DNA of 52,884 nucleotides from a virus: positions 1-52,884 of IMG/VR virus record IMGVR_UViG_3300037247_001071. One strand, given 5' to 3'. The number at the start of each line of letters is the position of its first letter. The first letter of the stretch is position 1. A program made the position numbers and the translations under genes. A model generated the notes under the pieces. It made no database searches, was not told the DNA's origin, and saw only the letters and a program-made list of their open reading frames with translations. This document shows positions 2,107 through 46,417 of this stretch, piece by piece.

Positions 2107-2125
2107 GGAGGATCCCGTAAGTGGT

Positions 2126-2686
2126 CTAACTGTCGGCCTTTGTGAACATGTAGATTTCGAAGCTGCGGCACTTGTGGATGGACGGACAGGTTAGGCAATT
2201 CCACCCGCAGACGTTGCCGATTTCCATGGCCACGTTAACGCTGCCGTCTTGATAGATGCCAGCGTTCGTCCACCCCGCCAGCGGCACGTCACGGCGCACT
2301 GTGACGTACGCCACCCCGCCGGGCCGTAGCGCGGTCAGGATCCCTTGTACCACGAACATACGTTCCGCGGCGGTTGGGAGGGTGTCCAGGACGTGCGTGC
2401 AAAACACCACGTCAAAAGTCCCCATGGCGTGTTTGCCGCCTTCGGGGCAATGCACGGGGTCAAATCCCATGGCGTCTGCGCCGAGCCCCCGGAGCTCTTC
2501 AACGTCCTTCCCGTAGCCACACCCGTAATCCAGAACGCGCAGGCTCTTTTTGTAAAGGACATGCCCTTGCGTCGCAAGCCACCTACAAGGCACGCTCCAG
2601 GTTTTGCGGGTGAGCGCAGTGCGCCCAGACGCCTCGCGATGTTGGTGGATGATCTCGCTGGTGCTTGGTTCGTTGACGGTAGTCAT
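2126..2686 (-). CDS. Class I SAM-dependent methyltransferase with Cys-rich C-terminus
   Basis: The start is the ATG at 2686, 7 nt after a perfect GGAGGT; a GTG nine bases earlier is less well placed. The 186-residue protein has the SAM-binding motif VLDYGCGYGKD, an acidic residue after strand 2 (GFDPVHC), and a DVVFCTHVLDTL motif IV region, so it is a Rossmann methyltransferase. The target is unknown. The C-terminus carries CGWNCLTCPSIHKC, a four-cysteine cluster that could bind metal and is unusual in this fold. It lies directly downstream of the Gp88-like gene, so the two may act together. A second copy is at 50129-50689. Confidence 0.75.
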   Translation of the reverse strand: MTTVNEPSTSEIIHQHREASGRTALTRKTWSVPCRWLATQGHVLYKKSLRVLDYGCGYGKDVEELRGLGADAMGFDPVHCPEGGKHAMGTFDVVFCTHVLDTLPTAAERMFVVQGILTALRPGGVAYVTVRRDVPLAGWTNAGIYQDGSVNVAMEIGNVCGWNCLTCPSIHKCRSFEIYMFTKADS

Positions 2687-2698
2687 TATGGCCACCTC

Positions 2699-3457: not shown

Positions 3458-3459
3458 GG

Positions 3460-3678: not shown

Positions 3679-3983
3679 TTCGTGCCTTTCCAGCTGGCGT
3701 TGGCGTACGAGCGCGCCTTTACAAGCGCGATCTTGAGAGTAGTGTGTTCCTGGAACGCACCCACCGTTTGGATCTGGCCACTTCGGTTAGAGAAGCGGAC
3801 AGTGTATCTGGGAAACCCGTTAGGGCTCTCGGAACTGACGAAGTAAACACCACGCTTGCCCCGGTAGCTGCCAGGGAACACGATGCTGGAGACGCGGGAC
3901 TTGAAGAGCCGCATAGTGGCGGGGTCGAACCATGAATGTCCAGTCTCGCCATTTCGTTGCTTGATGTCACCAAGGGTGAACAC
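3675..3983 (-). CDS. Hypothetical protein (102 aa)
   Basis: Starts at GTG after an excellent GGAAGGAG site. The sequence is rich in aromatic and basic residues (HSWFDPATMRLFKSRV, then YFVSSESPNGFPRYTVR) and looks like a small beta-rich folded domain. I recognise the general look from other phage early regions but no named family. It is coupled to the next gene by a 4-nt overlap. A second copy is at 51678-51986. Confidence 0.65.
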   Translation of the reverse strand: MFTLGDIKQRNGETGHSWFDPATMRLFKSRVSSIVFPGSYRGKRGVYFVSSESPNGFPRYTVRFSNRSGQIQTVGAFQEHTTLKIALVKARSYANASWKGTK

Positions 3984-3999
3984 AGTAGACTCCTTCCGG

Positions 4000-4080
4000 T
4001 TAGTCGGACTCGCCGCGCATAAGGGCTACGATGCGGGCCACGACATGGATCAGCATGACAACCGCGAGACTGCTCCACAT
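4000..4080 (-). CDS. Micro-protein with one membrane segment (26 aa)
   Basis: A 26-residue reading frame (MWSSLAVVMLIHVVARIVAL, then MRGESD) sits behind a strong GGAGAA site. Its start overlaps the stop of the preceding gene (TAATG). It is almost entirely one hydrophobic helix with a charged tail. Position, ribosome site and overlap all support translation; function is unknown. A second copy is at 52003-52083. Confidence 0.55.
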   Translation of the reverse strand: MWSSLAVVMLIHVVARIVALMRGESD

Positions 4081-4256
4081 TATGCTTTCTCCTGACACTT
4101 CTGGCATTGTCCGGTGATCAGGTATTCGCGTCGGCTTAACTCACTTGTGAAGTCTGTAGCCTTGCCGTCGCAGTATGCGCACTCGTCTGCGAGGATCGCC
4201 GTGCGTCGGCGAGGAAAGAAGTTGTCAACGGGACGGCGTGGTCCGGGGTCGGCCAT
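4080..4256 (-). CDS. Small zinc-ribbon protein (58 aa)
   Basis: The frame starts at the ATG at 4254-4256 and ends overlapping the next start. It has two CxxC knuckles, ECAYC near residue 26 and QCQKC near residue 52, separated by SRREYLITG. The ending REYLITGQCQKCQ resembles a motif I recall at the C-terminus of many small phage proteins. Likely one zinc ion is bound. The role is unknown; nucleic-acid or RNA polymerase binding are possibilities. A second copy is at 52083-52259. Confidence 0.65.
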   Translation of the reverse strand: MADPGPRRPVDNFFPRRRTAILADECAYCDGKATDFTSELSRREYLITGQCQKCQEKA

Positions 4257-4257
4257 G

Positions 4258-4365
4258 TTACTGTCCGTCCACGAGGTTGACCAGCGAGGTCAGGATTTGT
4301 GTTGCGGCGTAGAACGCGAAGGTGATGGGAACGAGGATCGCAGCGGCTTTCCAGCGGTAGTCCAT
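4258..4365 (-). CDS. Micro-protein with one membrane segment (35 aa)
   Basis: Starts MDYRWKAAAILVPITFAFYA after a GAGGAGG site and overlaps the previous stop (TAATG). It has a single hydrophobic helix of about 22 residues with a short polar tail. Together with the 26-residue protein it forms a pair of tiny membrane proteins in the early leftward cluster. Host takeover or superinfection exclusion are possible but unproven. A second copy is at 52261-52368. Confidence 0.6.
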   Translation of the reverse strand: MDYRWKAAAILVPITFAFYAATQILTSLVNLVDGQ

Positions 4366-4526
4366 TACTTCCTCCTCTGTTGCGCGTCTCTGCGTTGATG
4401 CTCCAGCTTCGCCAGCAAAAGATCTCGTGTGATTTTTGTGGCGAGAGCAACACGGTGTGGGTCGTTCGACTTGAGCGCTTCGGCGATTGCCTCTGCAATC
4501 TGTTGCGCGATCACTGTCGAGGACAT
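4365..4526 (-). CDS. Small helical protein (53 aa)
   Basis: Begins MSSTVIAQQIAEAIAEALKS and ends in a basic stretch (HQRRDAQQRRK). Predicted to be all helical. It is the first gene after the 450-bp noncoding region and is coupled to the next start by TAATG. GGGTAG lies upstream as a ribosome site. No family recognised. A second copy is at 52368-52529. Confidence 0.6.
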   Translation of the reverse strand: MSSTVIAQQIAEAIAEALKSNDPHRVALATKITRDLLLAKLEHQRRDAQQRRK

Positions 4527-4973
4527 GTCTACCCTCCGTTCTTGCCGCCTTCATTGGCGACACTTCAGACTATCATGTGGAAGCGTATCTGTCCAATGGA
4601 ATTGGCAAGTAAACTCTAACTCGTGGTGTGATAGGCAGTTATGGTAGTCGCACGAGAGACTACAGAGCACCAGTACAGTGATAGGCGTGGATCGGGGTGG
4701 TGCGGCTCGGACCCAATTGGTCCAGCCCGCACGTACAGCATGGTATGCACCGTCCCGCCCCGAAAGTATAAGGCATGCGCGTGGTGTGGTGCGGTCCGCT
4801 CCGTTACTGTAAGCGCCGTGCCAGGTTAGGGGTGTAGCAAGTAGCGTGCCGGGTGGGGTGGGTATGGTTTTTGCATGGGCGGACCGGGGGGAGGGGGGAA
4901 CTTCACCCCTTAGTATATGGGTGTGGCTGTGAACACGCCTGGGTATATAGGCTCCGAACCAGGGGCCGGGAGG
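4527..4973. other. Noncoding region with hairpin and G-rich tracts
   Basis: About 447 bp without a credible gene. It contains an imperfect hairpin at 4700-4732 (arms GTGCGG...GGACC and GGTCC...CCGCAC, AT-rich tip). Several G runs lie on the plus strand at about 4829-4898 (GGGTGGGGTGGG, then GGGGGGAGGGGGG). Two AT-rich words follow, TTAGTATATGGG and GGGTATATAGG, which resemble part of the shared leader element. It could be a replication origin, a packaging or terminus region, or a structured leader. The right copy of the overlap ends inside it. Confidence 0.5.
4569..4596 (-). promoter_or_regulatory. Possible promoter for the small-gene cluster
   Basis: On the minus strand there is TTGGAC (4591-4596), a 16-nt spacer and GATAGT (4569-4574). 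The match to sigma70 boxes is only moderate. It is about 45 bp upstream of the first small gene and just inside the long noncoding region, which is a sensible location. The repeat copy is at 52572-52599. Confidence 0.35.
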
Positions 4974-6896: not shown

Positions 6897-7178
6897 ATGC
6901 CAGATCCCCAAGCAGGAATGATCGTCCCTCTTCCCTGTCAAGGAAAGCCGAGAGGAAGGTTGGTCCGGCGGATCACCGCCTGCGGAGCCCGCCATCCCAT
7001 CGAACACACGGAGTTCTACGAGCGGATGTATGTCCGCATGATGCCCACCCTGCATCTCGTCAGCATCCACGACCTCCACAAGAACGTGAAGGTCACCGAG
7101 CGGGTCTTCGTCCACGAGGGCGAATTTGAGCGCACCGAAGACGGTTACCCCATTTACATCCTCAGGGAGCAATTGTGA
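6897..7178 (+). CDS. Hypothetical protein (93 aa)
   Basis: It lies between the terminase genes, with GGAG upstream of its ATG and a 4-nt GTGA overlap with the next gene. Sequence features include PCQGKPRGRLVRRITACGAR and an acidic C-terminal half. No motif or family recognised. Context suggests a packaging or morphogenesis accessory, but there is no direct evidence. Confidence 0.6.
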   Translation: MPDPQAGMIVPLPCQGKPRGRLVRRITACGARHPIEHTEFYERMYVRMMPTLHLVSIHDLHKNVKVTERVFVHEGEFERTEDGYPIYILREQL

Positions 7179-7789
7179 TCCACATCCGCATCCCCGACAT
7201 CTTCAACCAGGGCCCTCGCCACGCACTCGCGAAGAGCATCTGGGCCGCCGCGGCTGATCACTGGGGCGACGAGGTCGCGATTGACATGTACCCCCACCAG
7301 GGCACGCACAGGGACGCCCTGCGTAGTTGGTGGTTCCACGCGCACAAGCACCCGGACACCGTCCAGGTTTTCACCGAGACCGATTTCCTCCCAGAACCCA
7401 CCTTCCTGAAGGCCGCCCGCGCCGACGCCGCTCTCTACGGCCTCACGGGACCCCAGGCGCGCCACCGGGACTGTGGGAAGAGTTTGCCGGTGGATCACTC
7501 TCCCCAGGCCGGCGCGTGGCTGCTGGTAGCGGCCCCCGAGAGGATCCGGCAGCTAGATTTCTCCTCCAGCGAGCCCGGCCGGTCTTTACCCGAGGAGTGC
7601 CCCGGCATGAACCTCTTGGCCGGCGAGTGGCAGGATCCTGGCCTCTACTACCCCGGCTACGGCCTTCACACCTTCTGGAGCCGCGCCTGGCATGACGACG
7701 CCCCAGCCGGCGGCGCCTTCGACCTCGAAGACATCCGCCAGAAGATCGATGTCCATCTGCAGCACTACAGGGAGATCTGGAATGTCTGA
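7175..7789 (+). CDS. Hypothetical protein, possible GT-A-like fold (204 aa)
   Basis: GTG start with GGGAG 7 nt upstream. The protein opens with a short beta-type segment (MIHIRIPDIFNQGPRHALAK). Around residue 66 it has VQVFTETDFLPEP, which resembles the acidic metal-binding loop of GT-A glycosyltransferases. The second half holds many Trp, Tyr and His residues (LYYPGYGLHTFWSRAWHDD). Two clearer glycosyltransferase-like genes lie nearby at 10069 and 16711, which is why I consider this reading. The fold is not certain and it may be an unrelated protein. Its stop overlaps the TerL start. Confidence 0.4.
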   Translation: MIHIRIPDIFNQGPRHALAKSIWAAAADHWGDEVAIDMYPHQGTHRDALRSWWFHAHKHPDTVQVFTETDFLPEPTFLKAARADAALYGLTGPQARHRDCGKSLPVDHSPQAGAWLLVAAPERIRQLDFSSSEPGRSLPEECPGMNLLAGEWQDPGLYYPGYGLHTFWSRAWHDDAPAGGAFDLEDIRQKIDVHLQHYREIWNV

Positions 7790-10068: not shown

Positions 10069-10857
10069 ATGGCATCGATCTCGGTCCGGCAAGTCGGCTT
10101 CCTCCTACGCGTGCACCGCCGCAGCGAATGGCTATCCGTCATCTTCTCCCAGATGCGGCAGGTCGCACGCGGACGGCGTGCCCACCTCGTCATCATGGCA
10201 GACCGACCATCCCCCAATGTGATCAGCGCACTCGCGAAGATCGAACGGCTGAAACCCGACAACTTCGACTTCACCCTCCTGGAGTGCCCGGAGCCCATCC
10301 GTACATCACAGGGATGCCGCTGGACCGAGACGATGCAGTTCATGTACCGCCACCTCCGTGAGGACGGGGCCTCCGGCGCCGGCATGCTGTGGGACGACGA
10401 CATCATCCTCTCGGACGTTGCCCTCCAGGAGATCCGCGCTCACCTGAATTTCATGGACGTGGACCGAGTCGAGGCCGACTGGTTCAACATCTGCAACGAG
10501 GAGGCGACTCACTACGACAGCGGGTTCCTCCGACATACTGGCACGCATCTCTTCCGCATCTACAAGGACGACGACTTCAGCGACATCCTCACGAGGACGA
10601 TGGGAGGTGGGGGTACGCAATCCCCCATCTTCGTCGCACGCTCTGCGAATTTCGTCCACATGAAAGGGCGCATTCTCCACATGGGGTACTGCAGTCCGGA
10701 TCACCGACAACTAGCCTGGAATGCGGCAAAAGCCTGCGGCCAGACAGATGGTTACTTCCGACATCTCTTCCGCGAGCCTGTGCCGAAAGTGTGCAGTGGG
10801 CCGACGATGACGAGTGAGGCTCTGACCAAGCATCTGGCCCAAGGCGCCGCGCTGTAA
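10069..10857 (+). CDS. Glycosyltransferase-like protein (GT-A fold)
   Basis: The 262-residue protein starts one base after the previous stop. It opens with a beta-alpha unit (VGFLLRVHRRSEWLSVIFSQ) like a family 2 glycosyltransferase or 'exchange words with the host' type. A DxD-type metal site follows (GMLWDDDIILSD, about residue 105). Later come an HMKGRILHMG segment and an aromatic acceptor-side region. It probably transfers a sugar from a nucleotide-activated donor. It lies immediately before the portal gene (10-nt gap), so it is expressed with capsid proteins. The donor and acceptor are unknown. Confidence 0.6.
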   Translation: MASISVRQVGFLLRVHRRSEWLSVIFSQMRQVARGRRAHLVIMADRPSPNVISALAKIERLKPDNFDFTLLECPEPIRTSQGCRWTETMQFMYRHLREDGASGAGMLWDDDIILSDVALQEIRAHLNFMDVDRVEADWFNICNEEATHYDSGFLRHTGTHLFRIYKDDDFSDILTRTMGGGGTQSPIFVARSANFVHMKGRILHMGYCSPDHRQLAWNAAKACGQTDGYFRHLFREPVPKVCSGPTMTSEALTKHLAQGAAL

Positions 10858-10867: not shown

Positions 10868-12919
10868 ATGGCACTCTCTCGTGGGAACCCGATCTCGATC
10901 GAGGTACTCCAGGTCGCGCAAGCGATCGATGACGTGGAGTTGATGAAGCAGATCAAAGAGTTGATCCTCGACATCCGCGCCACAGACCAAGAACTCATAG
11001 GCTGGCTGCAGAAGCAAGCAGAGCTCGTTCGCATTCGCCTCGGCAGCCGCAAGGGGCGTAACATCCCCTGGAAGAACGCCTCGAACATCAACGTCCCTCT
11101 CATCGACGGCATCATTCGTCGCTGGCGCCCAGGCGTTGCGAGTTTGGTTCTCGATGCCGAGCCGGTTGCGTTCTTCACGGCCCAGTCTCCGAGTGACTTC
11201 GAGGCCGCCCGCTCGGCGGAGAAGTTTTTCACGTACCTCGTTCTCACTTACATGGAGTCGACCTACCCCGTCATCCAGCTCGTCGATCTCGTCGCTTGGC
11301 GTGGACACGCATACACGCGCGAGGGTTGGAAGTACGAAACGTCGCGCGAGGCGCGGGTGGTACCGATCGCGCATCTCTTCCCGAATGGCCTCACGCAGAC
11401 TGTGCAACAAATGCAACAACAGGCCGCGCGGACCCAGCAGGATCCCCCGACCGCCGAAGACATCGTGATGACCGCACTGGAGAGCGAGTATCAACTCGAC
11501 CGCCAGGACGAGCGCGAAGGCCCGATGCTCCTTGCCGCCGTCACCAGGATCCTTGCCGGCCAGGAGTACATCAAGCTCGTGTACCGGAAGGTCGCCATCG
11601 ACCGCCCAGACTGGGCCCCGATCGATCCCCTCAACGTCATTGTGCCCCAGAACCAAAACCCAGAGAAGGCCGACTTCTTCTGCCAGATCCACCACATGAC
11701 GCGCGACCAACTCAAGGCCATGGCCATAGACGGGCACCTGCCCGCGGGGCGCGTTGACAAATTGTTGAAGGGTATCTCCGGCGACAGTGAGGCGGCAGCT
11801 GGCGTGCCCACCACGGATGGCATGCGCGACCGCATCCAGGACATCATGGACCGCGTTGCCGGTAGGTCCCGCCGCGCGAATACCCGTCAGGGCAAGATCG
11901 GCAAGATCATCATCTGGGAGATCTTCGCCCGCTTGGACATCAACGGCGACGGCGAACGCGAGCGTTGCATCGTGTGGTACGCTCCCGGTGGCAAGAGCGA
12001 CGGGAGTGATCCTATCGAAGGGCAGGTCCTGGCGGTCCTCGATTACCCCTACCCCTTCGACACGTGGCCGATCACCCTCTACCCCTTCGAGGCCGCGGCC
12101 CGCCCCATCGACAATCGCGGGATCGCCGACATGCTGCGGCCCCTGCAGAAGGTCGTCACCGCTTTCCACAATGCCCGGATCGATGCCTCGCAGATCGTGC
12201 TCGCGCCTGTTCTCCTGATGCGGGTGTCCGGTGGGAACTACCGCAAGAGCATCAAGTGGCAGCCGGGCTCCGTCATCCCCGTGGCCAGCACCCAGGACAT
12301 CTTGCCGTTGACCCAGAACCTCGCGATTTTGGCCGGCCTTCTCCAGGAGGAGCAAGTTAACCAGCGCCTTGCGGAGACCTACGTGGGCGTGTTCGACGCG
12401 ACCCTGACGAACCTCCAGCAGCGCGGGGAGCGCCGGACAGCCGCCGAGGTGAACGCGATCCAAGGCATCTCCTCGAACATCTTCGGCCTCGACGCCAAGA
12501 TCTTCCAGGTGGCCCTCTCGAAGAGCTTCACCAAGCTCTGGCAACTCTACGTGGATCTCGGGCCAACCGAGCTCTTCTTCCGCGTGACCGAGGAAGAGCT
12601 CCCGAGGATTGCCCGAAAGCACGAGATCAACCGGTCCTACGACATCCGGGCCGCGGGCACCCCGGCGAATACCAACCGGTCCTTCCAGATCTCCGCCCTG
12701 GAGCGGATCATGTCCTCGCCGTTGACCCTCCCGCTGATGCAGGCCGGCCGCCTCGACGGCGCCGAACTCTTCCGTCAGTGGGTACAACTCGTGGACTACA
12801 ACGTGGCCAAGCGCATCATCCGGTCCGAGGAGGAGGGCGCCAACGTCCAGCTCGTCCTGGAAGCCGCCCAGCAGGCGGCCGAGCAGCGGGGCGTTGAGCC
12901 GCCGCCGCCGATCATCTAA
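10868..12919 (+). CDS. Portal protein (P22-like)
   Basis: The 683-residue protein has the size and pattern of P22-type portals: a helical N-terminus, an early conserved stretch (GRNIPWKNASNINVPLIDGI), a central wing with IDRPDWAPIDPLNVIVP, and a stem/clip region. A Gln/Glu/Ala-rich C-terminal helix (VLEAAQQAAEQR) could form the barrel. It forms the dodecameric DNA channel that docks the terminase. It is preceded by AAGGAACAG and ends in a TAATG overlap with the next gene. No frameshift or fusion is visible. Confidence 0.8.
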   Translation: MALSRGNPISIEVLQVAQAIDDVELMKQIKELILDIRATDQELIGWLQKQAELVRIRLGSRKGRNIPWKNASNINVPLIDGIIRRWRPGVASLVLDAEPVAFFTAQSPSDFEAARSAEKFFTYLVLTYMESTYPVIQLVDLVAWRGHAYTREGWKYETSREARVVPIAHLFPNGLTQTVQQMQQQAARTQQDPPTAEDIVMTALESEYQLDRQDEREGPMLLAAVTRILAGQEYIKLVYRKVAIDRPDWAPIDPLNVIVPQNQNPEKADFFCQIHHMTRDQLKAMAIDGHLPAGRVDKLLKGISGDSEAAAGVPTTDGMRDRIQDIMDRVAGRSRRANTRQGKIGKIIIWEIFARLDINGDGERERCIVWYAPGGKSDGSDPIEGQVLAVLDYPYPFDTWPITLYPFEAAARPIDNRGIADMLRPLQKVVTAFHNARIDASQIVLAPVLLMRVSGGNYRKSIKWQPGSVIPVASTQDILPLTQNLAILAGLLQEEQVNQRLAETYVGVFDATLTNLQQRGERRTAAEVNAIQGISSNIFGLDAKIFQVALSKSFTKLWQLYVDLGPTELFFRVTEEELPRIARKHEINRSYDIRAAGTPANTNRSFQISALERIMSSPLTLPLMQAGRLDGAELFRQWVQLVDYNVAKRIIRSEEEGANVQLVLEAAQQAAEQRGVEPPPPII

Positions 12920-14173: not shown

Positions 14174-15130
14174 TTGGCCAACCTTGTAACCTGGGACGAG
14201 TTTACTGCTGGCGCACGCCCTCAGGGCGGCACCATTGCGGAAACCGTCCTGGCAGAGGTCACGAACCTCATCTCCAAAGAGCGTCCGCTGTTGTCCATGA
14301 TCGGATCGCAGCCGGTGACCAACACGTATGTCGAGTTGCTCACTGACCTCTTGGGGACTCGTGGTCTCAACGCCCAAGTCGAAGGCGCGGCGGCAACTAA
14401 CCCCGCGCTCCAACAGCCCGTACGTCACTTTGCGCACGTTCAATCGTTCGCCAAGTGGGGTGTGGTTTCCGACGAGCAACGTCTCGTGGGGCACTACAAC
14501 GGCGACCCGTTCACTTACCAGGTGGCGAAGTCCGTTGATGAGCTGATGAACGACATCGAACACGCACTGCATCGCGGTTCCGCGATCACCGGTGCGACCG
14601 ACGCCGCGCGTCAACTTCATGGGATGCTCAACATCTTCTCCGGGCAGTCCGGTACCGCTACCTTCACGGATAGCTCCGGTACCACGCTGACCGAAGAGGT
14701 CTTCGTTGACCTCCTGCAGGTGTTCCGGGACCAGCGTCTGGGTATCCGCCCGACGCAGTGCTACGTCAACACGTTCCTCAAGCGTACCATCTCTGAGTAC
14801 TCGACCCGCGTTACGCGGAACATCGACGCCGCGGAGAAGGCCCAGATGCTCATCGTCGAACGCCACGAAAGTGACTTCGGCGCCATGGACATCCTCTACA
14901 CTGAGGACCAGCTCGTGTCGGCCTCGAAGACGACCTTCGGCAACTCGCTGATGTTCATCCAACCCGACAAGTTCGCCGTCGGCTGGCTCCGGCCGCCCAC
15001 GGTGGAACAACTTTCTCGGGACGGTCTCCGTGACCGCTTCCAGATCAACGCGCAGGCGACCCTGCTCTATGATCACGAGAAAGGTGGCGGTGGAGGCACC
15101 GGCTTCGTCGCGTACATCAACCAAGCCTAA
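14174..15130 (+). CDS. Major capsid protein (SU10/DUF5309-like)
   Basis: The start is a TTG at 14174, with GAGGAG overlapping the scaffold stop just upstream. The 318-residue protein begins MANLVTWDEFTAGARPQGG. It contains a typical capsid stretch (NDIEHALHRGSAITGATDAA), and its C-terminal third (FGAMDILYTEDQLV, then SLMFIQPDKFAVGWLRPP) resembles the DUF5309/SU10 major head proteins with an HK97 fold. A strong terminator follows directly, as expected for the most highly expressed virion gene. The family match is from recall of the pattern. Confidence 0.8.
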   Translation: MANLVTWDEFTAGARPQGGTIAETVLAEVTNLISKERPLLSMIGSQPVTNTYVELLTDLLGTRGLNAQVEGAAATNPALQQPVRHFAHVQSFAKWGVVSDEQRLVGHYNGDPFTYQVAKSVDELMNDIEHALHRGSAITGATDAARQLHGMLNIFSGQSGTATFTDSSGTTLTEEVFVDLLQVFRDQRLGIRPTQCYVNTFLKRTISEYSTRVTRNIDAAEKAQMLIVERHESDFGAMDILYTEDQLVSASKTTFGNSLMFIQPDKFAVGWLRPPTVEQLSRDGLRDRFQINAQATLLYDHEKGGGGGTGFVAYINQA

Positions 15131-15145: not shown

Positions 15146-15191
15146 AGGGTGGTCGTCTTCGTCGCGAATGGAGGCGACCGCCCTATTTTTT
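15146..15191 (+). terminator. Rho-independent terminator after the capsid gene
   Basis: A 10-bp stem (AGGGTGGTCG with CGACCGCCCT, one G-T pair), an open loop of about 19 nt, and ATTTTTT after the stem. It begins 16 nt after the capsid stop, and the T-run precedes the next gene's ribosome site. It should reduce read-through into the following decoration-type genes and so set relative amounts. Confidence 0.8.
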
Positions 15192-15203
15192 CAGAGGACA
15201 TCG

Positions 15204-15713
15204 ATGACGCATCTTTCTAACCAGATACTGTCCCAGCTTGTCGCAATGGCAGCGGACGTGGCTACCATTGCCGCCGTTGGAGGAGGATTCACCATGTCGG
15301 GTGTAAGACTAACCCGCACCTCTCTAATGAGTTTTACCGATGGATTAGGCGCTCCCGTGGAGTGGCAAACCGAAGACCTTGATGATGGTGATTGGGCAGA
15401 TCTAGTAGTTGATGACAAGATCATCACTGTACCCTCGGGTATCACGCGCATCATTATTTCAGCCGGCATACGGTGGGTCGGTAGCTCAGTTGGGCAGCGC
15501 GAGGGCTCGATACTCAAAAACGGTGGCACCAATGTGGTAACGACTAACTGGGACGCTACAAGCGTAGGTGAATGGGCTGCCACGCTCACCACCGGAGTCC
15601 TCGACGTGGTGGCTGGTGAAACGTACCAACTGCAGCTGACCCAAACCAGCGGGGGCGCTCTTAACCTCGTTCCCTCCGGTTCTTTCCTGTCTGCGTTTGC
15701 ATTGGATGCCTAA
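15204..15713 (+). CDS. Virion surface/decoration-like protein (169 aa)
   Basis: The start is the ATG at 15204 with AGAGGA 6 nt upstream; the longer frame would run into the terminator. After a helical N-terminus (about 35 residues) the protein is beta-rich: DKIITVPSGITRIIISAGIR, later GVLDVVAGETYQLQL and an FLSAFALDA end. This is the alternation of a C1q/TNF-like jelly roll often used in phage head or tail decoration proteins. It follows the capsid gene. The role is inferred from composition and place. Confidence 0.55.
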   Translation: MTHLSNQILSQLVAMAADVATIAAVGGGFTMSGVRLTRTSLMSFTDGLGAPVEWQTEDLDDGDWADLVVDDKIITVPSGITRIIISAGIRWVGSSVGQREGSILKNGGTNVVTTNWDATSVGEWAATLTTGVLDVVAGETYQLQLTQTSGGALNLVPSGSFLSAFALDA

Positions 15714-15721: not shown

Positions 15722-16270
15722 ATGACTTCAGGAGTCCAAAAAGACATCAAGCGCTATCAGTCGTTGCAAGTCGACGGCCTTCCTTTCTGGCAATTCGCCG
15801 GCATATCAGGATCAACGGCAGTGAGTGATGTAGAGATGATTCTAGATCATTCGGGTGCCGCCCAAGATTATTCTCTAATCCCACCCACCGGACAGATCTG
15901 GAAAGTCTCTCGAATGATAGTGTTTCTGCGGGACACCGGGCAGTACGCCGCAGAGAAATACGGAGCCGGCGCAGCGTTGACTAACGGGGTGCGCGTTTAT
16001 CACAGGAACTCTGCTGGGGCCGTAATCAAAGAACTCACGGGATCCCCTGTGAAAGAGAATGCTTCGTGGAGTGCTCACTGTCACGATGTGAACTTCTTCG
16101 ACTTTGGCGTGGGCGATAGTTTCCTCTCCGCTCGTTGGACTTTCCGAAGAGGAGGCCGGGCTTTGACACTTGATGGTACTGCAGGTGAGTACTTGGCTAT
16201 CAGGGGTAACGACGACTTCACCTTCTTACAGAACCACAGCTTCAAGTGTGATGGATACGTGGAGGCATAG
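15722..16270 (+). CDS. Virion surface/decoration-like protein (182 aa)
   Basis: ATG behind AGGGAG, 8 nt after the previous gene. The sequence is beta-rich (GQIWKVSRMIVFLRDTGQY, GDSFLSARWTFRRGGRALTL) and ends in an aromatic, acidic strand. It resembles other phage head-associated jelly-roll proteins in style, but no family name can be given. It pairs with the preceding gene, and both may decorate the capsid or form short head fibres. Confidence 0.55.
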   Translation: MTSGVQKDIKRYQSLQVDGLPFWQFAGISGSTAVSDVEMILDHSGAAQDYSLIPPTGQIWKVSRMIVFLRDTGQYAAEKYGAGAALTNGVRVYHRNSAGAVIKELTGSPVKENASWSAHCHDVNFFDFGVGDSFLSARWTFRRGGRALTLDGTAGEYLAIRGNDDFTFLQNHSFKCDGYVEA

Positions 16271-16313
16271 CACGGCTTGCTTGTCTATGGGATCGTGAAG
16301 AGTTGTGAGGACG

Positions 16314-16709
16314 ATGATAGATAAACCCGACTACGTGAAGGCGCGCGAGGGCAAACCCCTCATTCGTTCGCTTGCCAGTTCTAAAGCCGACCTACGCAGA
16401 CGGCGCGACTTGATCCGCCAGACGGTGCAGGCGTGGTATAACCTGAACCCCCGGTATGCAAAGTGGATGGCGACCTTCCTCAAGGAGATCACCAAAGTGG
16501 AGCACACCGGCGGCAAGTGGCGCAACGGTAAGGGCCACTGCTCCCTGCGCCTGCCTCGCGAATTGTTCATCTCCCTGCGAAAGGTCTTCCAGATCCACGC
16601 CCCAGACATGGAGCCGTTCGCAACCGACGACCTCGACATCAAAATTCTCTGCGAAGAGTTCCCCAACCTCATGCCGACGGGAAACCGCGGCCGGATCCGA
16701 AAGGACTAA
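16314..16709 (+). CDS. Hypothetical basic protein (131 aa)
   Basis: The ATG at 16314 has AGGACG directly upstream; a GTG nine bases earlier is an alternative. It is strongly basic in the first half (SSKADLRRRRDLIRQTVQAW) and ends GNRGRIRKD. Predicted mostly helical with a short beta part (GKGHCSLRLPRELF). It might bind DNA or a phosphorylated substrate. It lies directly before the large glycosyltransferase gene with a 1-nt gap. No family recognised. Confidence 0.55.
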   Translation: MIDKPDYVKAREGKPLIRSLASSKADLRRRRDLIRQTVQAWYNLNPRYAKWMATFLKEITKVEHTGGKWRNGKGHCSLRLPRELFISLRKVFQIHAPDMEPFATDDLDIKILCEEFPNLMPTGNRGRIRKD

Positions 16710-16710: not shown

Positions 16711-19371
16711 ATGCACGGACCGCCGAACCAGCCTGTGATCACCAGCGAGATGCTGGCCGAGAAAGGCAAGAAGCACCAACCGGTGAGCTACAACCTCATC
16801 GTCAAGGGTAGCCCCCAAGCTGTACGCAAGTGCGTGGACAGCATCTACGGGGCGCTCTTCGTCCGCGGTTGCAAGGACGAGTGTGTCATCGTAGACACCG
16901 GCTCCACGAACAGTGCGTTCAAGAAGATCAAGCAACTGGAGAAGCTGTTTCCAAACCTCCGGGTGATTGACCGCCGCGACATCGCCGTGAACTACCTTCC
17001 ACTCGTGGAGAAATACTTGCACCCCGATGTCTTGGAGGCCTACATTGAACATATCGGTGATCCCCGGGGCATCCTCGACTTCTCCGCCGCGCGGCAGATC
17101 GCACAAGACGCCTCGAAGAACGATCTCATCTTCTGGATCGACTCTGACGACGTGTTGATGGAGGAAAAGCAAGGCGAACTTCGGAGGGCCATCAACTTCA
17201 TCTTCACGCACACGCCCATGACGCAAATCTTCATGGACTACGACTACGAATTCGGCCACGACGGAGTCTGCACCACCGTACTGCGCCGCGAGCGCATCTT
17301 CAAAAAGGACATCTTTCACTGGGTGGGCCGTTGCCACGAGACCGCCATCCCGCGCCCCGGCAAGGACTCCGGCTCCATGGCGTTCCTGGAGTGCGTGCAC
17401 TCGAAGATCGTCCACACCGATGCCCGGAAACCGCACAAGGTGTCCGACGTTCGGAACTACATCATTCTCCGCGACGAGTTCGAGGAGACCAAGGCGGCCA
17501 ACTGTCTCGATCCTCGCACCGTGTTCTACCTGGGCAACAGCGCCCGGGGCCTGGAACTGTTCAGCGAGGCTGAGAGCTACTACAAGTTCTTCGACTTCCA
17601 CTCTGGCAGCATCGAGGACCGGTACGCTGCGCACTACTACCGCGCCCAGATGTACATGGACCCCCGCGTGAAGCGGCCCTTTGATGCTCTGGATCACTTC
17701 TTCAAGTGCGTGGAGATCAAGCCCTTCGACCCCCGCGGCTACTTCGGCCTCTCCCGTGCCTACGGTTCGCTGGCGCGCTGGATGGAGGTTGTCCACTGGT
17801 ACAAGATGGGCCTCGGTGTCGAGATCCCGAAGGACCAAATGTTCTCCCACGACCCGACCCACATCCACTATCACCCGCACGTGATCGCCGCCTACGCCTA
17901 CAAGGAGATGTACCGCGGCGAGGAGGCCATGGAGTGCGCCGAACGCGCATACCGGTTCCGGCCCAATTCCGAGGAGGCGCAGGAGATGTGGAAGCGCTTC
18001 CGGATGAATCTGTACGGGGTGGAGATCCACAAGGCGGTCAACAACATCACCAACAACATCCGCTACCCGGGGGGCCTGGACTCCAAGCGGGTCGCTGTCC
18101 AGATCTGCGAGGAACTGACTGCGATCCCCGAATCATTGGAGCGGAACGGAGTTAGCAAGCTGGAACCACCCGAGGGGAGGGAAGAGGCTCCATCTGTCGC
18201 CATCATGTGTGGCCCGAGCGGGGAGCCTTGGGGCCCTTTCTGCCGCCAGGATGGCACCGGCGGCTCCGAGAAGATGGTCATCATCCTGGCGGACGCCCTC
18301 CAGCGCAAGGGCGTGAACGTCACGGTCTACGGCGAGGTTCCCGTGCCGGTTCGCGGCGTGTCCGCGGAGACCGGCGTGGACTGGCGGCACTGGGCGGAGT
18401 TCGACCCGAAGCGCCAGCGGGACGTGGTCGTCTTCTGGCGGGACCCCGACGGCGCCATGAAGGTGCGCTGCCCGGCGCGGTTGAGAATGTTGTGGAACCA
18501 CGACGTACAGGACGCGTCGCGGTACACGAAGGATGTGCTGGAGATGCTTGACTACATACAGTTCCAATCGGAGTTCCACCTGGACTCCGTCAAGGACGTT
18601 GTGCCCGCGGAGAAGGTGTGGGTGGCCCGCAACGCCATCGAGGTGAAAGATGCGTCTGAAGCGCCAACCCGCAACGCGAAACGGGTGCTCTTCTGCTCCT
18701 CCCCGGACCGCGGTCTGACGACGGCCGTCGAGGTGGTGCGGCGCGCCCGCCTCGTGGATCCCGAGATTACCCTGGTGGTGACCTACGGCGTGACGCCGTG
18801 GGCCCGCAAGATGTTCGCTCAGCAGACCCATAGGTTCGTGCCGGACTTGGGGCGCGACGTCAGTATGGACGAGTACGAGCGCTTTTTCCGCAACCGCATC
18901 GACGGGGTGGACGGCGTAGTGCTCAACCGGATCGGCTTCGAGCAGATGCGCGGCCTGATGCAGTCTTCTGGCGTGTGGATCTACCCGACCCGCTTCCCGG
19001 AGATCTCCTGCATGAGCGCAATGGAGGCACAGGCCAATGGGATGGTCGTATTGTCCACCCGCTACGGCGCCCTCAAGGAGACCATCTCGGTCGGCGCCTT
19101 CCCGGCTCTCCCGGACCTCCCGGAGGCCGGCGGCATCTCGAACGAGTGGTTCGATGAAGCCGCAGAGATGCTGGCCAAGGCGGTCAACGTACCCGCCGAG
19201 AGCCCAATTCGCGACGCGCACGCGCGCATCGCACAGGAGCGCTTCGACGTTGAGGCTCTCGCAGACGACTGGATTACAAAGCTCGGTCTGGGGGCGGCTA
19301 CGGCGGTTCCACCCCTGGCGCAAGAGGCGCTCGTGCCGCCTGCCGAGCCCATTTCAAAGGAAATCCCGTGA
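16711..19371 (+). CDS. Large glycosyltransferase: GT-A (family 2) + TPR + GT-B (family 4-like)
   Basis: From the ATG at 16711 (AAGGA upstream) the protein has 886 residues. Residues about 25-255 are a family 2 GT-A domain with VDTGSTN, DFSAARQIA and the metal site FWIDSDDVL (D144-D147). Residues about 255-450 are helical repeats of TPR type (AHYYRAQMYMDP, GYFGLSRAYGSLARW, VIAAYAYKEMYRGEEAMECA). Residues about 490-875 are a GT-B domain with DGTGGSE near its start and YPTRFPEISCMSAMEAQANG, the family 4 EX7E donor site. It could add two different sugars or extend a chain. It lies among virion genes, between capsid and adaptor, so it is probably expressed late. The acceptor is unknown. Confidence 0.8.
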   Translation: MHGPPNQPVITSEMLAEKGKKHQPVSYNLIVKGSPQAVRKCVDSIYGALFVRGCKDECVIVDTGSTNSAFKKIKQLEKLFPNLRVIDRRDIAVNYLPLVEKYLHPDVLEAYIEHIGDPRGILDFSAARQIAQDASKNDLIFWIDSDDVLMEEKQGELRRAINFIFTHTPMTQIFMDYDYEFGHDGVCTTVLRRERIFKKDIFHWVGRCHETAIPRPGKDSGSMAFLECVHSKIVHTDARKPHKVSDVRNYIILRDEFEETKAANCLDPRTVFYLGNSARGLELFSEAESYYKFFDFHSGSIEDRYAAHYYRAQMYMDPRVKRPFDALDHFFKCVEIKPFDPRGYFGLSRAYGSLARWMEVVHWYKMGLGVEIPKDQMFSHDPTHIHYHPHVIAAYAYKEMYRGEEAMECAERAYRFRPNSEEAQEMWKRFRMNLYGVEIHKAVNNITNNIRYPGGLDSKRVAVQICEELTAIPESLERNGVSKLEPPEGREEAPSVAIMCGPSGEPWGPFCRQDGTGGSEKMVIILADALQRKGVNVTVYGEVPVPVRGVSAETGVDWRHWAEFDPKRQRDVVVFWRDPDGAMKVRCPARLRMLWNHDVQDASRYTKDVLEMLDYIQFQSEFHLDSVKDVVPAEKVWVARNAIEVKDASEAPTRNAKRVLFCSSPDRGLTTAVEVVRRARLVDPEITLVVTYGVTPWARKMFAQQTHRFVPDLGRDVSMDEYERFFRNRIDGVDGVVLNRIGFEQMRGLMQSSGVWIYPTRFPEISCMSAMEAQANGMVVLSTRYGALKETISVGAFPALPDLPEAGGISNEWFDEAAEMLAKAVNVPAESPIRDAHARIAQERFDVEALADDWITKLGLGAATAVPPLAQEALVPPAEPISKEIP

Positions 19372-19467
19372 GTGACGCAGGTCTCTTTACACAACTCGGC
19401 CGCCAACAAGCCTATAGGCGCCGCACTAGAGTGGCTACTGGATAAACTACAGAAAGAAACGCGATGA
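19372..19467 (+). CDS. Micro-ORF A (31 aa), paired with 19685-19780
   Basis: A GTG directly after the glycosyltransferase stop opens a 31-codon frame ending EWLLDKLQKETR. Its stop overlaps the ATG of the next gene (ATGA). The C-terminal EWLLDKLQK is shared with micro-ORF B, and the first two DNA differences between the copies are silent. A GTG four bases earlier in another frame gives a 25-residue alternative, but only this frame is shared. It may be a true micro-protein or a coupling leader for the next gene. Confidence 0.4.
   Translation: MTQVSLHNSAANKPIGAALEWLLDKLQKETR
19429..19461 (+). repeat. 33-bp direct repeat, copy 1 (copy 2 at 19745-19777)
   Basis: The two copies differ at four positions. 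Each lies at the end of a micro-ORF and directly before the start of a following gene, with a purine-rich CAGAAAGA that could act as a ribosome site. The spacing is 316 bp. Confidence 0.75.
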
Positions 19468-19684: not shown

Positions 19685-19780
19685 ATGAAAAGACTGTACC
19701 CTGTGCGCGATTGCGAAGACGGCGATTGTATACAAGTACACAGAGAGTGGCTACTCGATAAGCTACAGAAAGACAAGTAG
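19685..19780 (+). CDS. Micro-ORF B (31 aa), paired with 19372-19467
   Basis: Frame MKRLYPVRDCEDGDCIQ... ending REWLLDKLQKDK, stopping 1 nt before the adaptor gene's ATG. It has the same length and nearly the same C-terminus as micro-ORF A but an unrelated N-terminus. The 33-bp DNA repeat covers the shared part. Translation is plausible; function is unknown. Confidence 0.4.
   Translation: MKRLYPVRDCEDGDCIQVHREWLLDKLQKDK
19745..19777 (+). repeat. 33-bp direct repeat, copy 2
   Basis: Second copy of the repeat at 19429-19461, placed directly before the adaptor gene. See that entry. Confidence 0.75.
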
Positions 19781-20731
19781 ATGGCCTCAACCTTGGTGAA
19801 AGATCTCATCGACCGCGTGCAGCGGATCGCCGATCGTGTGGACCCTTCGTACCGGGTCCGCGTGTTGGACAGTCTCGATGAGGCTCAACAGTGGTACAGC
19901 AGCCAAGTTCCATGGGATGCGTTGAAGCGTATCGAGGATTTTCAGTCTACTGGTGAGTTTTTGACTCTACCCGATCGCGTGAACAAGATCATCCGCATAG
20001 GGGACAGAACCAATGCTCGCCCGCTGAACCCTGGCGAGTTCTTCGAGCACCGCCGCTCGGGTGCTTACTTCCAACGTACCACGGGTGCGCCGCTGGAGTG
20101 GCGTGACATGGGTTTCGTAGCCACGGTGAAAGATCTCTCCGCGGCCGCGGTCATTCACGTATCGTCCACGGCTTCGGAGGCGATCGCCGTACAAGTGCGT
20201 GGGCTGGTCAGTGACTCCACCGCCTCTGGTACCTCCCTGGCGCTGTATGAAGCCAAGGAGACCATGTCGCTAGTTGGCGCCACACTGGCCTCGACCAATA
20301 CCTACACTACGATCATCGCGATCCAGAAGGACAAAGGCACGACCAATGATGTGCTCATCGGCACAGCCGCCGACGGGCAGATCGCGCGCATTCCCTCGTG
20401 GGAAGCACGTCCGATGTATCGCAAGGTACAGTTTTCCCCCGTGCCGAGCGGCCAGGCCCTTGAGGTTGTCTACTTTCGACGTCCCGACCGCATCACGAGC
20501 GAGAACGATGCCTTGGATCCTGCGGTCAACGAAGAGGCACTCATGTGGCGCGCTGCGGGGAACCTTCACTGGATGGATAATGAGGGCCAAGCCGCTGAAC
20601 GAGCGTGGCAAAAGGCCAACGAGGTGATCGCCTTGAAACGAAACGAAGAAGAAACTTTCGGCGAAAAGGACTTTACGGTGAGTCCGTGGCTCGGCTACGT
20701 GAATCTCGAAGACGAGTTCTGGCAGGGGTAG
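19781..20731 (+). CDS. Head-tail adaptor/neck protein (probable)
   Basis: The 316-residue protein has a helical N-terminus (LVKDLIDRVQRIADRVDP, then LDSLDEAQQWYSSQVPWDAL) like adaptor proteins that dock under the portal. A beta-rich middle insert follows, with VIHVSSTASEAIAVQVRG and ARPMYRKVQFSPVPSG. The end returns to the adaptor pattern (DPAVNEEALMWRAAGNLHW). This layout resembles adaptors of SU10-like phages, which would agree with the capsid type. It lies directly before the hub gene. The role is inferred. Confidence 0.6.
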   Translation: MASTLVKDLIDRVQRIADRVDPSYRVRVLDSLDEAQQWYSSQVPWDALKRIEDFQSTGEFLTLPDRVNKIIRIGDRTNARPLNPGEFFEHRRSGAYFQRTTGAPLEWRDMGFVATVKDLSAAAVIHVSSTASEAIAVQVRGLVSDSTASGTSLALYEAKETMSLVGATLASTNTYTTIIAIQKDKGTTNDVLIGTAADGQIARIPSWEARPMYRKVQFSPVPSGQALEVVYFRRPDRITSENDALDPAVNEEALMWRAAGNLHWMDNEGQAAERAWQKANEVIALKRNEEETFGEKDFTVSPWLGYVNLEDEFWQG

Positions 20732-35647: not shown

Positions 35648-35799
35648 GGTACACTCGTCCCCTCCGGCGAGTAACCATGGTCGCTAAGCCAGACAGTGTA
35701 TTCCTCAAGAATCTGACGAACTGTCTTATCTGCAAGCCTTTGCTCGCGTTTGCCGCTGCCAACTACTTCAGACAAAAATTGATCCCATATTCCGTTCAT
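35644..35799 (-). CDS. Small hypothetical protein (51 aa)
   Basis: Begins MNGIWDQFLSEVVGSGKREQ and is helical and charged, ending YSPEGTSVP. ATGA overlaps tie it to the aminotransferase gene upstream and the 67-residue gene downstream, which is strong evidence that it is real. Function unknown. Confidence 0.6.
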   Translation of the reverse strand: MNGIWDQFLSEVVGSGKREQRLADKTVRQILEEYTVWLSDHGYSPEGTSVP

Positions 35800-36776
35800 G
35801 CGCTCAAGATCCTCACACACACACGCCGCACCGCCGCGGCGTCCATCTTCACGTGGCAAGGCAGCGTGATGATCTCTGACGAAACCTCCGCCGCGACCGG
35901 ACACTGCATGGTTTGCTCCTTGTTCAAAGGGTAGTGGTGTCCCCAGGCGATGCCCGCCGAGGTGAGCACCCGGCGCCAGTGGTCTCGCACTACCTCTGAG
36001 GGCGCCCGCACCACACACATGTGCCCCGATGCCTCCTCTGCCCGCCGGGTGAGGACGAGCTTTCCGAGGTGTCTCTCGTACCAGGCGAGGACCTGCCGCC
36101 GCCGCTCCCGCCGCTTGTCGTGCTGATTGATCCCTTCCCGGACGAGTGCCGCGGCCACGTCGCTCATGAGACCCTTGATGCCCCCGCCAGGTAACCCTGC
36201 CCAACGACGCATCACCAGATTTCCCCCGAGAACCACGCGAATCGCATCCGCGAGTCCGACCCCAAAACACACGACGACCCCGCCGTCAGGAGAGGGCACC
36301 TCTTTCTGCGGAGCGAAGGAGTAGACGATAGCCTGGGTGGCACCGACGCGGAGCATCTTACCATGCTTCGGGTCACCAAAGCGGTGAGCGGCGTCAAGAA
36401 TAGTGGGTATACCTTGGTTCAGGTCGTACGGGATGCCCCAGAGGTCCACGGCGATCTCCCGGTACTCCACCTCGGCTCCGTAGTCGAGCCACTTCGGGTA
36501 GCCATCCACTCCGGAGTACGTCGACGGCCACGTCAGTGGGCACACACGGGGGGACTCTACCTGGAGCACCTTGCACGCGGCCCACAGGGCAGCCGTAGCG
36601 GAAGAGGCGGCGACCACCTGCAGAGGATCCACCCCCAGGCGCTCCGCGATCATCTTCTCGACCGCCCGAGCCCGCGGCCCCGGAGCCCATTGTCCGGACT
36701 TCAGGGCCGCGACCACCCGCTCGATGCCTCGGGTGGCGAGTGCGGGCGGGGAGAGATCAGACTCCGGTCTTCTCAT
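35796..36776 (-). CDS. DegT/DnrJ/EryC1-type sugar aminotransferase
   Basis: From the ATG at 36776 (GGGGGAGAG upstream; ATGA overlap with the MazG-like gene) the protein has 326 residues. It shows the PLP pattern of the DegT family: a substrate/phosphate loop (ASSATAALWAA, 57-67), the cofactor-side LDAAHRFG (D128, H131), and the PLP lysine in YSFAPQKEV (K158) followed by the Gly-Gly turn. Such enzymes aminate keto-sugars bound to nucleotides. It is about 50 residues shorter than usual, with reduced end regions. Together with the SDR (39878) and PglD-like acyltransferase (45809) it could make an acetamido sugar. Confidence 0.75.
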   Translation of the reverse strand: MRRPESDLSPPALATRGIERVVAALKSGQWAPGPRARAVEKMIAERLGVDPLQVVAASSATAALWAACKVLQVESPRVCPLTWPSTYSGVDGYPKWLDYGAEVEYREIAVDLWGIPYDLNQGIPTILDAAHRFGDPKHGKMLRVGATQAIVYSFAPQKEVPSPDGGVVVCFGVGLADAIRVVLGGNLVMRRWAGLPGGGIKGLMSDVAAALVREGINQHDKRRERRRQVLAWYERHLGKLVLTRRAEEASGHMCVVRAPSEVVRDHWRRVLTSAGIAWGHHYPLNKEQTMQCPVAAEVSSEIITLPCHVKMDAAAVRRVCVRILSA

Positions 36777-37087
36777 TGTCTCTCCCCCTTCAGCTCTTCC
36801 CACACGCGCTCCACGACCATCGGGAAGTCCAGGTTGAGCTTGGAACAGTAACCCATGAGTGCTATCACGACGTCGCCAACACCATTTGAGCAGTGGAGCC
36901 GCCAACCGCCTGCAGGTTCAGTGGACGTTTTGTATTTGGCACGACACCCTCGGGTGTGTGCGTGAGCAAGCTCCCCCATCTCTTCGACAGCAATGAGTAT
37001 CAACTCCGCGCCCGACTGATAGCCGAACTTCCGCGCGCTCCAGTCCGCGTGCTCCTCTTGAATCTTAGTCAGCGGTGTGTGCGCCAT
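36773..37087 (-). CDS. MazG-like nucleotide pyrophosphohydrolase
   Basis: The ATG at 37087 follows GGAGAAG. The 104-residue all-helical protein has AVEEMGELAHA (E35, E36, E39) and NGVGDVVIALMGYC (D72), the metal-binding EExxE...D arrangement of MazG/dUTPase-type enzymes. These hydrolyse NTPs or dNTPs to monophosphates. Neighbouring dNMP kinase and polymerase genes suggest nucleotide-pool control; (p)ppGpp-related roles are also discussed for phage MazG. Confidence 0.75.
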   Translation of the reverse strand: MAHTPLTKIQEEHADWSARKFGYQSGAELILIAVEEMGELAHAHTRGCRAKYKTSTEPAGGWRLHCSNGVGDVVIALMGYCSKLNLDFPMVVERVWEELKGERQ

Positions 37088-45808: not shown

Positions 45809-46417
45809 CTAGCGTGCCGGCACGCCCTTCACAGTGGCGCCGGGTGGCACGTGTTTGGTGACTACGGAGCCGGCGCCGACAGTGGCCCAGGCTCCTATGT
45901 TGATTCCGGGTAAGATCGTGGCTCCGGCACCTATGTAGGCACCGGTGTCGAGGCAACACCGGCCACTGATGTTCACACCGTGCGCGATGAAGGAATGTGC
46001 CCCGATAAGGGTCTCGTGGCCGATGAGAGATCCCATGTGAATCGCAACGTTCGTTCCGAGAATGCAGCCGGCCTGGATCTTCACGCCCTCCTGGAAGTAG
46101 GCGCCTGGCCCAACGTGGGCATGCGCGCGACTCACGGACGGGTGAATCGCGGACGTGAGAGTATACCCTGCTACATGAATCTTGTCAAGGACTTCTTTCC
46201 GGGCGACCGTGGAATTGCAGACGGCGTTGATTACATTCGCGCGAGCGGGCGCCCCAGGGTACACAGGGTAGCCTAGATACTCGTGGTCATTCTCCGGGGT
46301 GTACTCGAACTTCTCCCAATCGTCGTCAAGGAAGGCCTCCAGCCGGTACCCCGGGATCGCCTCCACGAGCGCGACGAGCTCGGGGTTGCTGGCGCCGTAG
46401 ACGTACACGTGCTTCAT
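45809..46417 (-). CDS. PglD/NeuD-like sugar acyltransferase (hexapeptide repeat)
   Basis: The 202-residue protein has a Rossmann-like N-terminus (VYVYGASNPELV, then FLDDDWEKF), typical of PglD/NeuD. A left-handed beta-helix follows from about residue 100 (VGPGAYFQEGVKIQAGCILG ... GAYIGAGATILPGINIG) and ends GVPAR. LIGHETLIGAH (H134) matches the catalytic His region. PglD acetylates the 4-amino group of UDP-sugars and NeuD acetylates sialic acid. It is the natural partner for the SDR and DegT-type enzymes. It holds a strong internal promoter at 46160-46188. Confidence 0.75.
   Translation of the reverse strand: MKHVYVYGASNPELVALVEAIPGYRLEAFLDDDWEKFEYTPENDHEYLGYPVYPGAPARANVINAVCNSTVARKEVLDKIHVAGYTLTSAIHPSVSRAHAHVGPGAYFQEGVKIQAGCILGTNVAIHMGSLIGHETLIGAHSFIAHGVNISGRCCLDTGAYIGAGATILPGINIGAWATVGAGSVVTKHVPPGATVKGVPAR
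46160..46188 (-). promoter_or_regulatory. Near-consensus promoter inside the acyltransferase gene
   Basis: On the minus strand there is TTGACA (46183-46188), a 17-nt spacer and TATACT (46160-46165) preceded by GGG. Transcription would lead into the RHH, primase, HD, HNH and polymerase genes. The GGGTATACT word also occurs in the DUF932 promoter. It lies inside coding sequence, so chance similarity must be excluded. Confidence 0.5.

What the first reader, a model, noticed from the sequence alone, without database searches (positions are those of the whole stretch)
16711..19371. Chimeric GT-A/TPR/GT-B glycosyltransferase inside the virion gene cluster
One 886-residue protein joins a family 2 domain (DSDD metal site), TPR-like repeats and a family 4-like GT-B domain (EX7E). 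It lies between the decoration-like genes and the neck genes, so it should be made with virion proteins. TPR segments could hold a protein acceptor, as in O-GlcNAc-type transferases. Phage-encoded glycosylation of capsid or tail proteins has been reported in actinobacteriophages. A two-domain enzyme with a TPR linker would be an unusual tool for it.
Basis: partly seen in the sequence, partly recalled or inferred. Interest (0 to 1): 0.8.

Follow-up and report, generated by a model that had tools for sequence, protein, structure and literature searches.

The report
Phage dual glycosyltransferase beside capsid gene
An uncultured short-tailed phage carries, next to its capsid gene, one protein that joins two sugar-transferring enzymes through a protein-gripping TPR arm; the same fusion sits beside the capsid gene in scores of uncultured phages, which suggests they sugar-coat their own particles.

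Summary
Window 16711-19371 encodes one 886-aa protein with a GT-A (family 2) domain (~25-240), a TPR solenoid (~242-480) and a GT-B domain (~490-860). The AlphaFold2 model is confident (pLDDT 92.7, pTM 0.91). The front half resembles protein glycosyltransferases (GmaR 3e-38, SunS 2e-26). The back half is GT4-like; TPR plus GT-B resembles OGT/SPINDLY in layout only.

It is not a one-off. Among 82 long homologues from uncultured viruses, GT-A residues D144/D146/D147/H209 and GT-B residues W576/R577/H597/D598 never change. An SU10-type capsid gene was found in 81 of 85 loci, usually just upstream. Starting from capsid genes instead, 53 of 55 assessable loci carry a match (51 clear). A small helical protein of unknown function usually precedes it.

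The window also encodes a sugar aminotransferase, a NeuD/PglD-like sugar acetyltransferase and a methyltransferase, and no recognisable base-hydroxylating enzyme. Best reading: a cytoplasmic protein glycosyltransferase whose TPR holds a virion protein, probably the capsid protein, while GT-A adds the first sugar and GT-B extends it. Acceptor, sugars and order are inferred. Host unknown; an actinobacterial host is unsupported. New variant of a known kind.

The parts
16711..19371 (+). 886-aa GT-A/TPR/GT-B glycosyltransferase
16783..17430 (+). GT-A (family 2) domain, residues ~25-240; DSDD at 144-147, W204, H209-E210
   Evidence: Pfam GT2; profile vs PDB GmaR 3e-38, SunS 2e-26, ThuS 1e-24; motif conservation
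17434..18150 (+). TPR solenoid, residues ~242-480
   Evidence: consecutive helices at high pLDDT; profile vs PDB TPR and OGT TPR regions; Pfam TPR above cut-off in relatives
18178..19290 (+). GT-B (GT4-like) domain, residues ~490-860; GxGGSE 515-520, WR 576-577, HD 597-598, E764
   Evidence: profile vs PDB D-inositol 3-phosphate glycosyltransferase 6.5e-8; Pfam Glycos_transf_1 above cut-off in relatives
16305..16709 (+). orf16305, 134-aa helical protein of unknown function, usually directly before the glycosyltransferase
   Evidence: found in 81 of 85 loci; within 60 nt of the GT in 62 of 80; no PHROG match in 71 members; model pLDDT 80.8 with no PDB fold match
14174..15130 (+). SU10-type major capsid protein, the leading candidate acceptor
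   Evidence: PF17236 1.9e-43; linkage to the GT
15168..15713 (+). putative head/decoration protein, an alternative acceptor
   Evidence: PHROG 13989 virion structural protein 2e-13
15722..16270 (+). second putative decoration-like protein
   Evidence: weak PHROG 31450 match; present in a few close relatives
10868..12919 (+). SU10-type portal
   Evidence: PF23899 2.9e-20
19781..20731 (+). SU10-type adaptor
   Evidence: PF24175 4.1e-9
35796..36905 (-). DegT/DnrJ/EryC1 sugar aminotransferase, likely donor-sugar enzyme (PLP lysine motif present; true start may lie inside this ORF)
   Evidence: PF01041 1.6e-28; WbpE, ArnB; SFxPxK and DxxH motifs aligned with relatives
45809..46417 (-). NeuD/PglD-like sugar N-acetyltransferase, likely donor-sugar enzyme
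   Evidence: TIGR03570 3.2e-43, just below its curated cut-off; perosamine N-acetyltransferase, pilin glycosylation protein, PglD
2126..2695 (-). methyltransferase, possible sugar-capping enzyme (role unknown)
   Evidence: PF13489 7.5e-12

Best explanation
It is a cytoplasmic, phage-encoded protein glycosyltransferase with two catalytic sites. The TPR solenoid grips an acceptor protein made at the same time, most likely the major capsid protein (or a head protein encoded beside it). The GT-A domain, which resembles the directly protein-modifying GmaR and SunS, attaches the first sugar from a nucleotide-sugar donor; the GT-B (GT4-like) domain adds a second sugar; in some relatives a fused methyltransferase may cap the chain. 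In this phage the donor is probably an N-acylated amino sugar made with the phage's own aminotransferase and acetyltransferase. Shown by sequence or structure prediction: the domains, intact active sites, capsid linkage, sugar enzymes. Inferred: acceptor, sugars, order of action, benefit.
For: Confident three-domain model. Foldseek: SunS matches the GT-A+TPR half (7msp, TM 0.70 on target); OGT/SPINDLY match in TPR+GT-B layout, with high rmsd. GT-A profile hits GmaR, SunS and ThuS well ahead of polysaccharide enzymes; a relative also hits the NCBIfam SunS model at 2e-8. Both active sites kept in 82 homologues. No transmembrane stretch. MCP found in 81/85 GT loci; from the MCP side, 53/55 assessable loci carry a GT match, including a lineage that moved the GT next to terL, and the 8 contigs of the MCP scan nearest the window are ones that carry it. 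GT divergence tracks MCP divergence (Spearman 0.67) better than portal does (0.45). Own sugar genes; DegT in 7 of 9 nearest relatives against 1 of 13 others. Neighbouring genes in other loci include sugar dehydratases, epimerases, aminotransferases and methyltransferases. FlmG shows a TPR region selecting the acceptor of a cytoplasmic protein glycosyltransferase (PMC7591256); mycobacteriophage capsids are glycosylated (as cited in PMC11256854).
Against: No glycan, acceptor or activity has been observed. Linkage and co-divergence fit vertical inheritance with the head module even if the substrate is something else. Cultured SU10-type relatives found by MCP are not among the GT hits. The second glutamate of EX7E is replaced by Lys in most homologues, so GT-B chemistry may differ. 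The window lacks a recognisable 4,6-dehydratase for its sugar pathway, and the sugar genes lie far from the enzyme on the other strand.
Confidence: 0.6

Rival explanations
1. It glycosylates a protein other than the capsid protein, such as the small orf16305 product, a decoration or fibre protein, or a host protein.
For: orf16305 ends within 60 nt of the first possible GT start in 62 of 80 loci and also precedes the GT in a contig binned as Taylorbacteria. GmaR and FlmG have a dedicated non-capsid acceptor, flagellin (PMC9638930, PMC7591256).
Against: orf16305 stays beside the MCP when the GT sits elsewhere, e.g. L143 and L164, and varies greatly. Decoration genes are kept only in a few close relatives.
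Confidence: 0.2
2. It alters the host's surface glycans during infection, blocking superinfection or changing receptors.
For: Phage glycosyltransferases are known to do this (general knowledge); neighbours such as LicD, epimerases and dehydratases also occur in surface-polysaccharide clusters.
Against: No membrane segment, a TPR arm, and GT-A similarity to protein-modifying enzymes. A place in the late virion cluster is poorly timed for this (inference).
Confidence: 0.1
3. It glycosylates modified bases in phage DNA, as T4-type enzymes do.
For: The window encodes a deoxynucleotide monophosphate kinase and an HD-domain protein, and phage DNA glycosyltransferases are common.
Against: No hydroxymethylase, thymidylate-synthase-like or other base-hydroxylating gene among the ORFs scanned. 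TPR plus GmaR/SunS-type GT-A fits a protein acceptor, and linkage is to the capsid gene.
Confidence: 0.06
4. It is a bacterial protein-glycosylation gene picked up recently as passenger cargo with no virion role.
For: GT2-TPR and TPR-GT-B pieces occur in bacteria.
Against: The full fusion was seen in one contig of the bacterial genome set, which has phage-like neighbours; it is old in these viruses (~25% identity to most members with catalytic residues kept) and carried by nearly all assessable members of the capsid clade.
Confidence: 0.04

Closest known systems
SunS/ThuS glycocin S-glycosyltransferases (SunS is SPbeta-prophage encoded)
   Same: GT-A domain followed by TPR-like helices on one chain; sequence profile and fold match
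   Different: No GT-B domain; acceptor is a small bacteriocin peptide; homologues score far below the curated SunS cut-off
GmaR, Listeria flagellin O-GlcNAc transferase and anti-repressor (PMC9638930)
   Same: N-terminal GT-A then TPR; best sequence match in the PDB (3e-38)
   Different: C-terminal part is an anti-repressor, not a second glycosyltransferase; acceptor is flagellin
OGT / SPINDLY (GT41) and FlmG
   Same: TPR arm plus GT-B domain acting on proteins; OGT/SPINDLY are top Foldseek matches
   Different: No GT-A domain; the GT-B here is GT4-like by profile; global superposition is poor (~20 A rmsd)
ctKR88 'beta4glucosyltransferase' (MW202524.1, Manatee Spring) and MW202497.1
   Same: Same three-part protein (ctKR88) beside a related capsid gene
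   Different: Deposited with generic or misleading names; MW202497 is split by groEL
Mycobacteriophage virion glycosylation (Che8 and others; Freeman et al. 2023, as cited in PMC11256854 and PMC12619734)
   Same: Phage-encoded glycosyltransferases linked to glycosylated capsid and tail proteins
   Different: Shown by experiment there, in another phage group; whether those enzymes share this fusion was not examined here

Membership tests
GT2-TPR protein glycosyltransferases (GmaR/SunS type) | GT-A fold with DxD metal site | tested here: met
GT2-TPR protein glycosyltransferases (GmaR/SunS type) | TPR-like helices directly after the GT-A domain | tested here: met
GT2-TPR protein glycosyltransferases (GmaR/SunS type) | direct transfer to a protein or peptide | not testable with these tools
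   needs an assay
SunS family (TIGR04195) | score above the curated cut-off of 350 bits | tested here: not met
   no hit for P0001; 33 bits for the ctKR88 homologue
O-GlcNAc transferase (GT41) | TPR arm plus GT-B domain | tested here: met
   layout only
O-GlcNAc transferase (GT41) | GT-B domain of the GT41 family | tested here: not met
   the GT-B profile hits a GT4-type enzyme and no OGT at 1e-4
GT4 (Glycos_transf_1) | Pfam Glycos_transf_1 above cut-off | tested here: inconclusive
   below cut-off in P0001, above it in several relatives
GT4 (Glycos_transf_1) | EX7E motif | tested here: inconclusive
   E764/E772 present here; position 772 is Lys in 51 of 82 homologues
Phage virion glycosylation system | glycan on a virion protein | not testable with these tools
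   no isolate
Phage DNA glycosyltransferase | companion gene making a hydroxylated base | tested here: not met
   none among ORFs scanned
SU10-like (Kuravirus-type) short-tailed phage | SU10-type portal, MCP and adaptor | tested here: met

The most novel reading that the evidence does not exclude
A widespread, nearly virus-only family of bifunctional protein glycosyltransferases in which one TPR arm serves two catalytic domains that build a two-sugar (sometimes methylated) glycan in sequence on the major capsid protein, so that particle glycosylation is a core, ancestral trait of a large uncultured phage clade.
Probability: 0.35. Interest if true: 0.82.

Novelty: new variant of a known kind. 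Interest (0 to 1): 0.66.

Why it matters
Phage particle glycosylation is known in few phages. If this family glycosylates capsids, glycosylation would be a standing feature of a large clade of uncultured short-tailed phages, with a defined enzyme to test. A single chain that holds a protein and adds two sugars in turn would also be a compact tool for building defined glycans on proteins, and a clean way to ask how a TPR arm picks its acceptor.

Tried and rejected
MCP alignment A4 was too diverse for a scan; A5 and A6 were used instead. A group I intron was considered for the split genes and dropped: the ORF between the halves is a full GroEL (PF00118, 1.6e-48), so this is a gene split. orf16305 gave no PHROG, Pfam or PDB-fold lead. 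Neither orf10069 nor orf7175 matched Pfam or PHROGs. The one full fusion in a bacterial genome set (L085) has GroEL and orf16305 beside it and is probably a phage contig. NeuD is not clade-wide: window plus one relative. The window's DegT, NeuD and methyltransferase found no homologue in the fetched loci by single-sequence search, so DegT was re-tested on whole records. Paper searches found no report of this fusion as a family; the library is open-access only, and Freeman 2023 itself was not held.

Full report
What is there. The ORF at 16711-19371 is real, well started (AAAGGA at 16700-16705; the previous gene stops one base earlier) and 886 aa long. Pfam finds the GT2 domain above cut-off and the C-terminal GT-B only weakly in this member, but in relatives it finds GT2, TPR and Glycos_transf_1 on one chain above cut-offs. 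An AlphaFold2 model from 69 sequences is confident throughout (pLDDT 92.7, pTM 0.91): GT-A ~25-240, TPR ~242-480, GT-B ~490-860. There is no membrane segment.

What it resembles. A profile of the GT-A part hits GmaR (3e-38), SunS (2e-26) and ThuS (1e-24), all enzymes that glycosylate proteins or peptides, far ahead of chondroitin synthase and similar enzymes (2e-9). The GT-B part hits a GT4-type D-inositol 3-phosphate glycosyltransferase (6.5e-8) and no OGT. Foldseek ranks SPINDLY/OGT and SunS at the top; whole-length superposition on OGT is poor, so that match is one of layout. The protein looks like a SunS/GmaR-type enzyme and an OGT-like layout that share one TPR.

How widespread. A scan of IMG/VR with four homologues gave 331 stretches encoding a relative, of which the best 80 were kept. 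In 82 long homologues the residues D144, D146, D147, W204, H209, H235, G515, G518, E520, W576, R577, H597, D598, N641, R667, Y692 and G693 are invariant; E764 is kept in 79; position 772 is Lys in 51 and Glu in 25. The family is old (about 25% identity to most members) and conserved at both catalytic sites.

Where it sits. Iterated profiles over ORFs of 85 loci found an SU10-type MCP in 81 and a small protein, orf16305, in 81, mostly in the order MCP - orf16305 - GT; these sets include the window and an overlapping copy of it (L005). In 62 of 80 loci the first possible GT start lies within 60 nt of, or overlaps, the end of orf16305. Because those loci were chosen for the GT, the test was reversed with an MCP alignment. 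Of 80 MCP loci, 55 have enough flank to judge (47 of the 72 new ones, plus 8 fetched earlier, which carry the GT downstream): 43 have the GT downstream of the MCP (within 3 kb for the 35 counted), 10 have a GT match upstream (L140 and L163 show only a GT-B stretch, so 51 are clear) and 2 lack it. Some of these contigs are the same as in the first scan, recovered independently. An MCP scan nearest the window found 8 contigs, the same ones that carry the GT in the first scan. Pairwise GT divergence follows MCP divergence (Spearman 0.67, 0 of 999 permutations) more closely than portal follows MCP (0.45). Cultured SU10-type phages found by MCP similarity, such as Pseudomonas phage Bjorn and Vibrio phage Vp_R1, are not among the GT hits.

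Sugar supply. The window encodes a DegT/DnrJ/EryC1 aminotransferase with the PLP lysine motif, a NeuD/PglD-type sugar acetyltransferase whose PDB relatives include perosamine N-acetyltransferase and a pilin glycosylation protein, and a methyltransferase. Among whole records, DegT occurs in 7 of 9 of the window's nearest relatives and in 1 of 13 of the others. Neighbouring genes in other loci include sugar dehydratases, epimerases, DegT, LicD and methyltransferases, and five of nine tested homologues (mostly chosen for their length) carry a fused C-terminal methyltransferase. This points to amino-sugar donors and capped glycans, by inference.

Mechanism and doubt. The most likely mechanism is that the TPR arm holds a virion protein, the GT-A domain attaches the first sugar and the GT-B domain extends it. 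FlmG gives direct precedent for TPR-based acceptor choice (PMC7591256), and a TPR role in acceptor choice is proposed for GmaR (PMC9638930). Capsid and tail glycosylation is established in mycobacteriophages (as cited in PMC11256854 and PMC12619734). Linkage alone cannot separate the capsid protein from its neighbours as acceptor. DNA glycosylation is disfavoured by the lack of a recognisable base-hydroxylating gene; host-surface modification by the TPR arm, the lack of membrane segments and the gene's place. The host is unknown.

Verdict. The domain architecture and its near-fixed link to one capsid type are shown. Function on virions is a well-supported inference that needs mass spectrometry. 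New variant of a known kind, with interest from its spread and its testability.

Noticed in passing
L003 3472-7791 (MW202497.1); L155, L160, L162, L164, L170: In a sister lineage the glycosyltransferase gene lies upstream of the portal and is cut in two between the Rossmann halves of its GT-B domain, with a complete GroEL gene between the halves and overlapping the second one; possibly a two-subunit GT-B enzyme.
   Followed up: partly
L056 7929-11288 (also L057): An intein with LAGLIDADG endonuclease motifs interrupts the GT-B domain of this homologue, a usual sign of an important gene.
   Followed up: no
window 16305-16709: orf16305: a small, very divergent helical protein between MCP and glycosyltransferase in 81 of 85 loci, with no PHROG, Pfam or PDB-fold match; a candidate head protein or glycosylation partner.
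   Followed up: partly
L085 1-4419: A contig binned as Candidatus Taylorbacteria carries GroEL, orf16305 and the full glycosyltransferase fusion; probably a phage contig in a bacterial MAG.
   Followed up: partly
window 1-4881 and 48004-52884: The two ends are near-identical (4674 of 4881 bases; mismatches begin at the very first bases), a long terminal repeat or an assembly overlap of a ~48 kb genome.
   Followed up: partly
window 7175-7789 and 10069-10857: Two genes conserved near the terminase and portal in close relatives have no family match; short acidic DxD-like stretches (TETDF, WDDD) suggest further GT-A-like enzymes.
   Followed up: no
window 19428-19457 and 19744-19773: A 30-nt direct repeat (93% identical) brackets a short stretch between the glycosyltransferase and the adaptor gene.
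   Followed up: no
window 37065-37745 and 43126-43746: A deoxynucleotide monophosphate kinase and an HD-domain protein, weak hints of unusual nucleotide metabolism without a recognisable base-modifying enzyme.
   Followed up: partly
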